Part shown: in pieces, positions 1,164 to 59,285 of the stretch
Numbering within the stretch: the first letter of the stretch is position 1
How the letters are laid out: every line of letters starts with the position of its first letter
Source of the DNA: a virus
Virus record (IMG/VR): IMGVR_UViG_3300009157_000001
Coordinates: 62,001-126,000 of that record
Length of the DNA stretch: 64,000 nt
Direction: 5' to 3' (one strand)
Translations under genes and position numbers: made by a program
Notes under the pieces: model-generated
Database searches by the model: none
What the model saw: the letters and a program-made list of their open reading frames with translations, nothing else
What the model was told of the DNA's origin: nothing

Positions 1164-1199
1164 AAAAAAAGAGGAGAGGCCTGTATGACCCCTCCTCTG
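1164..1199 (-). terminator. Intrinsic terminator
   Basis: On the minus strand, AGAGGAG pairs with CTCCTCT (7 bp) and a run of seven T follows. It lies 17 nt past the distal TAG at 1216-1218 of the upstream gene, which fits the view that the coding region originally ended there rather than at the TAA at 1300. Confidence 0.8.
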
Positions 1200-1215: not shown

Positions 1216-1299
1216 CTACTTCTTTTCCAGTCCGGCTTTCTGAAGCTCCAGGTAAGCAGCCTTGATGGCCTCACCATTGGTATGAGCAACAAGCTCATC
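1216..1299 (-). other. In-frame coding extension beyond a TAA stop
   Basis: Directly after TAA (1300-1302), the same frame encodes DELVAHTNGEAIKAAYLELQ and then KAGLEKK before TAG. The stretch is amphipathic-helix-like, unlike random sequence. Either a point mutation truncated the gene or the stop is read through to give a 148-residue product. Confidence 0.6.
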
Positions 1300-1665
1300 T
1301 TAAGCATCAGGATCCAAGGTGAACATCTGCTTGCGGTAGATAGGATCCCCACCTACACAACAAACAATCTTGGTTTCACCAGCCACTTTATAATCCCTCT
1401 CAGGATTTTTAGGATTGAGGGCTTCCAGAGATTCTTTGATGATAATCTTACCATCAATCTCCTGGCCATTTGCCCATTTCATTCCTTCCAGGTCAGCAAC
1501 TGTACCCGGGATGAAAGCACTTACTTTCTGCCTGCGCAAAAAGCCTGCTTCATCAATCATAGCACGGGTTTGTTCTACTCTCACTGAGCCATACTCAGGA
1601 TTGTTTTTGGAAGCTACCACGACTTTTCCATCGGGTGATGCAACCACTTTCACTTTTGTGTTCAT
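1300..1665 (-). CDS. Conserved small phage protein, 121 aa up to an in-frame TAA
   Basis: A compact protein of mixed strands and helices: residues 1-30 look like beta strands, then RVEQTRAMIDEAGFLRRQKV, and later KIVCCVGGDPIYRKQMFTLD. It resembles short conserved proteins of large Bacteroidota phages, but I cannot name a family. The TAA at 1300-1302 is followed in the same frame by 27 sense codons of good coding character ending in TAG (1216). It sits just upstream of a strong terminator and has its own leader (TTTAACTCAAAA... before the ATG), so it may be a single-gene, well-expressed unit. Confidence 0.75.
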   Translation of the reverse strand: MNTKVKVVASPDGKVVVASKNNPEYGSVRVEQTRAMIDEAGFLRRQKVSAFIPGTVADLEGMKWANGQEIDGKIIIKESLEALNPKNPERDYKVAGETKIVCCVGGDPIYRKQMFTLDPDA

Positions 1666-19777: not shown

Positions 19778-20203
19778 TTAACTATTAAGCCATCTTGTGT
19801 AACTGATGGATAAGAACCTCTCTGTTATTAATCTGGCAGTACTCTCCTCTTTAAAGTAGCAGCCACCCGGACGGCAAGAACCGTCACGATCGCAATACAC
19901 AGCATACAGTACCCAGCCAGAGGCAGTTTTTCTAAACCAAGGATAATACTTGGGAGTATTATCAGTAAAATCTGCCTTCCAGATCCTGTAACCATTATCC
20001 AGATAGTTGGCAGCTTTTATAATAGCTCTGATCTCCTCATCAGGTGAAGGTGAAACTTTTGGTTTCTCTTTCAGGATCTTAACTGCACTTTTATAAGAGA
20101 TGAGACTATCCATTCCTTTATCATCCTTCTCAATTATCTTTCTGAGTGCTAGAGCTTCTGCATCCAGAGCATCCATACGTTTTAGTGTTTCTTTTCTGTT
20201 CAT
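19778..20203 (-). CDS. Hypothetical 141-aa protein
   Basis: N-terminal coiled coil (RMDALDAEALALRKIIEKDD), then a beta-rich domain with WKADFTDNTPKYYPWF and YCDRDGSCRPGGCYF. The latter half (a W-Y-P-W-F pattern, then a Cys pair, then TARLITERFLSIY) resembles small uncharacterised phage and mobile-element proteins. Function unknown. Confidence 0.65.
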   Translation of the reverse strand: MNRKETLKRMDALDAEALALRKIIEKDDKGMDSLISYKSAVKILKEKPKVSPSPDEEIRAIIKAANYLDNGYRIWKADFTDNTPKYYPWFRKTASGWVLYAVYCDRDGSCRPGGCYFKEESTARLITERFLSISYTRWLNS

Positions 20204-55728: not shown

Positions 55729-56252
55729 GTTGTAAAAAATGTAAATCTTCTCCTTGTGGATGTAAGGACACTGCTTTGCCAATGGCACCACTTTGTACAA
55801 CAGCAGAATGTCCTCAACCTGCTCAGTGTCCTGAGGTTTGGGATGCCTGTTGTGTGATATATACAGGGGATACTATTGTAGACCTTGACATAAATCCCGG
55901 GGACAAGGTTTGTGAAATTCTCCAGAAGCTTATACTTAATGGTTTAAATCCTGGTTGTGTGGATCCTACATCAACTTGTCAAAGTGTTCTTAATCTATTC
56001 TCATATAATATAACAGATGTTGGTCTTGAGGTGCAATGGACGGGAGTATCTACAGCAACTTCTTATATTGTAGAATATAAAGAAGCTACATCACTGGTTT
56101 GGATTCTCAACCCTGCAGTACTTCCTCCTGTAGATCATAATGCAATAACAGGATTACAACCATCTACAGACTATCATGTGAGGGTAAATGCCATATGTGC
56201 AAGTGGTAATTGTTATTCACTCACCATCCAGGTGACAACTAAATCAACATAA
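55725..56252 (+). CDS. Cys-rich FN3-domain tail protein (175 aa)
   Basis: First 80 residues hold 12 Cys (opening SCKKCKSSPCGCKD, then DACCVIY). Residues ~90-175 are one fibronectin type III domain (LEVQWTGVSTATSYIVEYKE; LQPSTDYHVRVNAIC). 14 Cys of 175 residues. FN3 domains on virions help carbohydrate attachment; the Cys region may be held by disulfides. Confidence 0.7.
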   Translation: MSCKKCKSSPCGCKDTALPMAPLCTTAECPQPAQCPEVWDACCVIYTGDTIVDLDINPGDKVCEILQKLILNGLNPGCVDPTSTCQSVLNLFSYNITDVGLEVQWTGVSTATSYIVEYKEATSLVWILNPAVLPPVDHNAITGLQPSTDYHVRVNAICASGNCYSLTIQVTTKST

Positions 56253-56255
56253 GAT

Positions 56256-56981
56256 ATGAATTTCACAGCAAAATTAACAGTAAATTTCACATCCAACTAT
56301 ATAGGTATACACAGAATATGCTGGAGGATAGGCAGTTCTGGTCCTTATGACTGTTCTAATACAGTTAGCTGTTCCGGAGGAGGAGATCCTTGCTCTGATG
56401 AGGTTCTTATACCTGTAGAAAGTGATGACTGTTCACCTATAACAATTGAAGGATATGTACAAGCCGGCTGTGAGGATCCAGACTCAGAAGGAGGAAGAAT
56501 TCCATTTACTGTAGAATTTACACCATGGGAAGATTGTGAAAGATATACAGTAGAATGTACTGATGAACCTTGTGTGGAGATAACCCCAACAGATTGTGCA
56601 GGAACTACTGGTGTTGTTATAGCAGAGGGATTCTTTGCTCTTACTGATACTATAAAGATGTGTGCCAGCGGAGGTCCTCCTTCTATTCCTGTAGGATATA
56701 GTGTATCACTGGATAGTCCATCGACCTGTGTTTGTGATTGTTCATGCTATGAACTATCCGTAACACAAGAAGAAGGAGAAGATGCCTCCATACTTTTATA
56801 TTATACATCTTGCTGTGGAGATTTTGGTAGTGCTGTAATTATACCAGGAAGTCCTTTTAGAGGATGTATAGTTACAGGATCTAATGTATGGAAATTAACG
56901 GGAGCAGGAAGTACATCAGAGAATATCACAACACCATGCTCAGAAGCATCACCAACATGTGAATCACCATCTTGTGAATAG
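56256..56981 (+). CDS. Cys-rich beta tail protein (241 aa)
   Basis: Beta-rich with 21 Cys of 241 residues (for example CVCDCSC near the middle). Repeats of a G-x-C ... D-C pattern suggest a stack of small disulfide-bonded domains. No enzymatic motif. It is the last of the Cys-rich set. Confidence 0.6.
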   Translation: MNFTAKLTVNFTSNYIGIHRICWRIGSSGPYDCSNTVSCSGGGDPCSDEVLIPVESDDCSPITIEGYVQAGCEDPDSEGGRIPFTVEFTPWEDCERYTVECTDEPCVEITPTDCAGTTGVVIAEGFFALTDTIKMCASGGPPSIPVGYSVSLDSPSTCVCDCSCYELSVTQEEGEDASILLYYTSCCGDFGSAVIIPGSPFRGCIVTGSNVWKLTGAGSTSENITTPCSEASPTCESPSCE

Positions 56982-58317: not shown

Positions 58318-59285
58318 TGTTAAACTACTCACTTAGATATAGAACCTTTAATCAACTACTTGAGGATGTATCGGTAGACTTCAGGAATTATGCCCTGGAG
58401 AATATGATAGAACCTCAACAGTTAATCAAGGTGGCCCGGAGAGTAAACTATGATCTTGGTCTTAGAATTTCTATGACTAAGCAAAAGGTACTTGAAATAG
58501 AGAAGAGAAGAGTTAAGCTTCCGGATGATTTCTATATCTTAAATTTTGCTCTTGTATGTGGAGAATGGACAGTAAGTAGACCGGCAATTCAAGGAAGACA
58601 GATTGAGGAAAAAGCCTGTGATTTAAGTTCACTAGATCCTTTAGGAACTTCTTCTTTACCTTGTTCTCCAACTGTAGACAACTGTACAACTCACGTCATT
58701 CCTTGTGATCCTTGTGCAGATCCTCCTACAAGTTGTGATCCTTGTACCAAAACTATAAGTTGTTCTCTAAACAAGTGTGGAGAAGAAATACAATTAGTGC
58801 AGATCCTTAAAACTGAAACCAGAACTGTTAGTGCATTCTTTCCACTTAAGATAAGAAGTTCTCAAGATGTGGACTGTGATTGTCCTAATGTAGGATGGAC
58901 TTGTACGGACGAGGCTTGGATAAAAGATGGTTTCTTATTTACCAACTTTGATTGTGGTAATATATATATATCTTATCAAGGAATGATGGAAGATGATGAA
59001 GGAAATCTAGTAGTACCTGATCATGAGCTTCTCAATGATTACTACGAGTATGCATTTAAAGAAAGAATTCTAGAAAATCTATGGATGGGAGGGGAAGATG
59101 TAGTTCAGAAGATGAGTTACATAGCCCAGAAGCTAAAGGCAGCAAGAAATCAGGCACTTGGTATGGTAAATATGCCAAACTTTGAGGAGATGAGAAAAGT
59201 CTTTAATATTAACAGAAAGGTTCAATATGCCCGATATTATGATATGTTCAGGTCTTATCCCCCTATAAACTCATGTTGGTGTTAA
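58314..59285 (+). CDS. Tail tubular / ring protein (T7 gp11-like fold suspected)
   Basis: 323 residues. N-terminal helix bundle QQLIKVARRVNYDLGLRISM, IEKRRVKLPDDFYILNFALV recalls the opening of tail tubular proteins; a Cys-rich insertion lies at about residues 100-160 (HVIPCDPCADPPTSCDPCTK); the C-terminal half is helical (EYAFKERILENLWMGGEDVV). Next gene is the muzzle, as in crAss-like phages where ring precedes muzzle. Confidence 0.7.
   Translation: MMLNYSLRYRTFNQLLEDVSVDFRNYALENMIEPQQLIKVARRVNYDLGLRISMTKQKVLEIEKRRVKLPDDFYILNFALVCGEWTVSRPAIQGRQIEEKACDLSSLDPLGTSSLPCSPTVDNCTTHVIPCDPCADPPTSCDPCTKTISCSLNKCGEEIQLVQILKTETRTVSAFFPLKIRSSQDVDCDCPNVGWTCTDEAWIKDGFLFTNFDCGNIYISYQGMMEDDEGNLVVPDHELLNDYYEYAFKERILENLWMGGEDVVQKMSYIAQKLKAARNQALGMVNMPNFEEMRKVFNINRKVQYARYYDMFRSYPPINSCWC

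What the first reader, a model, noticed from the sequence alone, without database searches (positions are those of the whole stretch)
1216..1665. In-frame TAA followed by 27 coherent codons in an early gene
The 121-aa gene stops at TAA (1300-1302), yet the same frame continues DELVAHTNGEAIKAAYLELQ and KAGLEKK to a TAG at 1216, 17 nt before a strong terminator. The extension is a clean amphipathic helix, so it was or is translated. Read-through, or a recent nonsense mutation.
Basis: seen in the sequence. Interest (0 to 1): 0.65.

Follow-up and report, generated by a model that had tools for sequence, protein, structure and literature searches.

The report
Stop codon truncating a phage protein
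In a crAss-like bacteriophage, a small, probably DNA-binding protein has an early stop codon that removes a tail every known relative keeps; most simply this is a recent truncating mutation rather than a new way of reading the genetic code.

Summary
The minus-strand gene ends at TAA 1300-1302 and the same frame stays open for 27 codons to TAG 1216-1218. The open run alone is not unusual (18 of 110 long ORFs in this genome have one as long). Homology is decisive: all 126 homologous loci found in other viral contigs have a sense codon at the TAA position and read on, giving proteins of 149-192 aa where complete. The tail holds two of the family's most conserved residues (D123 in 90/92, H128 in 92/92 distinct sequences). 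The extension is the ancestral C-terminus.

The phage is crAss-like, uses the standard code (TAA is its commonest stop, 58/110), has no suppressor tRNA, and no other gene is convincingly interrupted relative to four large relatives. Recoding is rejected. A second contig of the same phage carries the same TAA, so a random assembly slip is unlikely.

The tail has not visibly decayed, so the stop is young or the tail is still translated. A nonsense mutation is favoured (0.75); even a read-through product would lack the acidic-hydrophobic tip seen in 84/92 relatives. The protein is probably an SSB-like OB-fold protein (weak structural evidence). Low to moderate interest.

The parts
1303..1665 (-). 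coding part of the truncated gene, 121 codons; probable SSB-like OB-fold protein of a crAss-like phage
   Evidence: homologues; structure model with weak SSB matches
1300..1302 (-). in-frame TAA at codon 122; a sense codon in all 126 homologous loci
   Evidence: same TAA in second contig L077
1219..1299 (-). 27-codon tail, homologous to the C-terminus of the relatives; includes D123 (1297-1299), H128 (1282-1284) and N130 (1276-1278)
1216..1218 (-). TAG that ends the extended frame
1170..1198 (-). terminator-like hairpin, 12 pairs, followed by a T run

Best explanation
A nonsense substitution in codon 122 (most simply CAA to TAA, one C-to-T change) has shortened a conserved crAss-like phage protein from 149 residues to 121. 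Translation ends at the TAA, and the 27-codon tail is an untranslated remnant that has not yet had time to decay. Shown: the tail is the ancestral C-terminus; the position is a sense codon in all relatives found; the genome uses the standard code; the same stop is in a second contig. Inferred: that the stop is obeyed, that the 121-aa form is stable and tolerated, that the ancestral codon was CAA, and that the protein binds single-stranded DNA.
For: All 126 homologous loci read through the position. CAA is the commonest codon there, 19 of 92 distinct sequences. TAA is the main stop of the genome, 58 of 110 ORFs and 30 of 49 of 600 nt or more. No suppressor tRNA. This is the only convincingly interrupted gene among the 50-59 genes shared with each of four relatives. 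No relative shares the TAA. The same allele is in L077. Even the read-through form would end in LEKK, without the acidic-hydrophobic tip that 84 of 92 relatives have.
Against: The tail shows no decay: it differs from L080 at 81% of silent but 16% of replacement sites (L079: 65% and 28%) and keeps 10 of 12 positions where both relatives agree; free drift of 0.3 substitutions per site would keep that many in only about 2% of simulations. The stop must therefore be young on a long branch. It also removes nearly invariant residues (D123, H128, N130), which should be costly, and there is no second copy of the gene.
Confidence: 0.75

Rival explanations
1. Leaky termination: the ribosome usually stops at the TAA but sometimes inserts an amino acid and reads on, so the phage makes a 121-aa and a 149-aa form of the protein.
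For: The tail is as well kept as in pairs of intact relatives and holds nearly invariant residues; no other source of the tail is encoded in the genome.
Against: TAA is the normal stop of this phage and, from general knowledge, the least leaky one in bacteria; no suppressor tRNA; no relative shares the TAA, so there is no sign of conserved read-through; the long form would still lack the family's usual tip.
Confidence: 0.12
2. Assembly artefact or minor allele: the phage population carries a sense codon and the TAA is an error or a rare variant chosen by the assembler.
For: Metagenomic sequence; the second contig L077 may come from overlapping or related reads, and it begins only 25 bases before the TAA.
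Against: L077 is a separate contig that matches over 13 kb with one substitution and one single-base gap, and has the same TAA; no contig with another codon in the same context was found.
Confidence: 0.1
3. Codon reassignment: the phage reads TAA as an amino acid such as glutamine.
For: Some Crassvirales reassign TAG to glutamine or TGA to tryptophan (PMC11210395, PMC10136315); glutamine is the commonest residue at this position in relatives, 25 of 92.
Against: TAA ends 58 of 110 ORFs; no other shared gene is interrupted by a TAA; no tRNA that reads TAA.
Confidence: 0.01

Closest known systems
Premature ochre (TAA) nonsense allele of a phage gene
   Same: One in-frame TAA, explicable by a single base change, in a gene whose relatives are all full length; downstream frame still recognisable
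   Different: Natural metagenomic allele with no tested phenotype; loss confined to the C-terminal tail
Stop-codon reassignment in Crassvirales (TAG to glutamine, TGA to tryptophan)
   Same: Same phage order; in-frame stop where relatives often have glutamine
   Different: The stop is TAA, which is the commonest working stop here; a single gene is affected; no suppressor tRNA
Programmed stop-codon read-through giving a C-terminally extended protein (such as RNA phage Q-beta A1, from general knowledge)
   Same: A short form and a potential in-frame extended form
   Different: TAA instead of the leaky UGA; no relative shares the arrangement; the extension is the normal end of the protein, not an added domain
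Single-stranded DNA-binding proteins (SSB)
   Same: Beta-rich OB-like core of similar size, and in most relatives an acidic C-terminal end with hydrophobic residues
   Different: No sequence match to SSB families; structural scores are weak; the window copy lacks the tip

Membership tests
Crassvirales (the phage) | crAss-type major capsid protein, portal and terminase | tested here: met
   Pfam Crass_capsid at E 1.3e-29 (cut-off 27 bits, score 103); PHROG portal at 8.9e-85 and large terminase at 1.3e-49
Premature nonsense allele | Sense codon at the position in relatives, tail homologous to their C-terminus | tested here: met
   126 of 126 loci; alignment
Premature nonsense allele | Translation ends at the stop and the tail is not made | not testable with these tools
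   Needs proteomics, ribosome profiling or a reporter
Stop-codon reassignment | The codon is avoided as a terminator and occurs inside many genes | tested here: not met
   TAA ends 58 of 110 ORFs; one interrupted gene only
Stop-codon reassignment | Suppressor tRNA in the phage (not always present) | tested here: not met
   Only one tRNA-like gene, anticodon CTG
Programmed read-through | Stop and extension conserved together in related genomes | tested here: not met
   No relative has the stop; no relative closer than 64% identity was available
SSB | OB-fold core | tested here: inconclusive
   Model pLDDT 89; nearly all leading Foldseek rows in PDB, and many in the viral library, are SSBs, but the best E-values are 0.03 and 0.009; VIA-align Z below 5, with other OB-like folds tied
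SSB | Acidic C-terminal tip ending in hydrophobic residues | tested here: met
   Met for the family, 84 of 92 distinct relatives by a simple motif; not met for the window copy, which ends TLDPDA or, read through, LEKK
SSB | Binds single-stranded DNA | not testable with these tools
   Needs a binding assay

The most novel reading that the evidence does not exclude
The TAA is read through at a useful rate in the phage's host, so that this phage makes a short and a long form of an SSB-like protein from one gene, a lineage-specific two-form system built on what is usually the least leaky stop codon.
Probability: 0.07. Interest if true: 0.55.

Novelty: new member of a known kind. Interest (0 to 1): 0.25.

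Why it matters
It is a clean natural case of a phage losing the conserved C-terminal tail of a widespread, probably replication-related protein, and it shows that an in-frame stop in a crAss-like phage need not mean recoding. If the tail proved to be translated, it would be a rare example of TAA read-through in a virus of bacteria.

Tried and rejected
TAA reassignment: rejected on stop usage and the absence of other interrupted genes. Separate downstream mini-gene: no in-frame ATG, GTG or TTG after the TAA. Frameshift instead of a stop: the frame is continuous. A second copy elsewhere in the genome: none. Function by sequence: no convincing hit in PHROGs, Pfam or PDB, none in annotated phage genomes, none in the species genomes scanned. 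Other alleles of the same phage: two degenerate DNA scans, one near-exact scan and one neighbour-gene scan returned only L077 and the known 60% relatives, so nothing closer than 64% identity was available to date the stop or to test whether it is shared. A first interruption scan gave many rows from antisense shadow ORFs; restricted to non-overlapping ORFs, the only other rows were an alignment running past a gene end and one at a gene start. Papers on crAss-like SSBs or TAA read-through: nothing relevant found. The second structure job, on the truncated form, was not run because such predictions are insensitive to truncation.

Full report
What is there. On the minus strand a gene starts at ATG 1665 and ends after 121 codons at TAA 1302-1300. 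The frame stays open for 27 more codons to TAG 1218-1216, and a 12-pair terminator-like hairpin follows from 1198. An open run this long after a stop is common in this genome (18 of 110 ORFs), so by itself it says little. No usual start codon lies in frame in the tail.

Homologues settle what the tail is. Searches of viral contigs gave 126 homologous loci (four of their contigs first seen). Every one has a sense codon where the window has TAA and reads on; proteins not cut by a contig end are 149-192 residues long. The codon at that column varies and is most often CAA (19 of 92 distinct sequences), so one C-to-T change explains the TAA. Residues just after it are among the most conserved of the family: D123 in 90 of 92, H128 in 92 of 92, N130 in 89 of 92. 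The tail is therefore the ancestral C-terminus. The closest relatives, 60-64% identical (L079, L080), read ASDVTVAHTNSEDIKAAYAAS and ASDVVIAHDNGEAIKAAYAEL where the window reads A*DELVAHTNGEAIKAAYLEL.

The phage. The window is part of a 126.6 kb virus record whose two ends repeat each other. Terminase, portal and a Crassvirus major capsid protein make it crAss-like. Members of this order are known to reassign TAG or TGA (PMC11210395, PMC10136315), so recoding had to be tested. It fails: TAA ends 58 of 110 ORFs and 30 of 49 of 600 nt or more, and the only tRNA-like gene has anticodon CTG. I fetched four large relatives of 107-122 kb and asked which of their genes are interrupted in this genome. 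Of the 50-59 genes shared with each, this gene was the only convincing case, and it was found with all four. Neighbouring genes on both sides are also neighbours in the relatives, and there is no second copy of the gene.

Is the TAA an error? A second contig of the same phage, L077 from metagenome 3300027722, matches this genome over 13 kb with one substitution and one single-base gap and carries the same TAA. That makes a random error unlikely, but the contig may derive from related reads, and it begins only 25 bases before the TAA. No other allele was found.

How old is the stop? Against L080 the tail differs at 81% of silent but 16% of replacement sites, against L079 at 65% and 28%. Of 12 tail positions where those two agree, the window keeps 10. 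Simulated free drift keeps 10 or more in 13% of runs at 0.2 substitutions per site and 2% at 0.3. So the stop arose late on this branch, or the tail is still translated; one lineage cannot separate these. With 19 codons the power is small, and the comparison of tail identities lies within the spread of other pairs, high against L080 and low against L083 and L103.

Truncation or read-through? I favour truncation. TAA is the working stop of this genome, no relative shares it, and nothing in the phage would suppress it. Moreover, 84 of 92 relatives end in an acidic stretch with hydrophobic residues, whereas the window's frame ends in LEKK at the TAG, so the long form would itself lack the usual tip. 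That suggests, without proving it, that this C-terminus had already been changing. Read-through keeps about one chance in eight, artefact or minor allele about one in ten.

What the protein does. The full frame gives a confident AlphaFold model (mean pLDDT 89): a beta-rich core, an ordered segment at 121-130 and a helix at 131-148. The leading Foldseek rows in the PDB, and many in the viral library, are single-stranded DNA-binding proteins, but with weak scores; VIA-align gives Z below 5 with several OB-like folds tied. Together with the SSB-like ends of most relatives I read it as a probable SSB-like OB-fold protein. This is inference, not a family assignment. If right, the mutation removes the part that in SSBs usually contacts partner proteins (general knowledge).

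Verdict. It is most likely an ordinary, recent truncating mutation in a conserved phage gene.

Noticed in passing
L008:16217-16303 (minus strand), record position 56217-56303, outside the window: The phage's only tRNA-like gene, called tRNA-Gln (CTG), has an anticodon arm of about 30 nt instead of 17: an 8-pair stem with a 14-nt loop by sequence. It may be non-standard, processed or degenerate.
   Followed up: partly
loci L011-L076 and L078-L136: The protein family is widespread in environmental viral contigs but has no match in annotated phage genomes, PHROGs, Pfam or the PDB: a conserved family apparently not described in these libraries.
   Followed up: partly
window 19853-19951 and record positions about 59087-59189 (outside the window): A 102-bp stretch is repeated at 80% identity in inverse orientation relative to the record, apparently inside coding sequence (CRPGGCYF-like).
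   Followed up: no
L085 (record G005), 149-aa homologue: This relative also lacks the usual acidic-hydrophobic tip (ends VVTDKL) and has the same length as the window's read-through frame, so C-terminal shortening may have occurred more than once.
   Followed up: no
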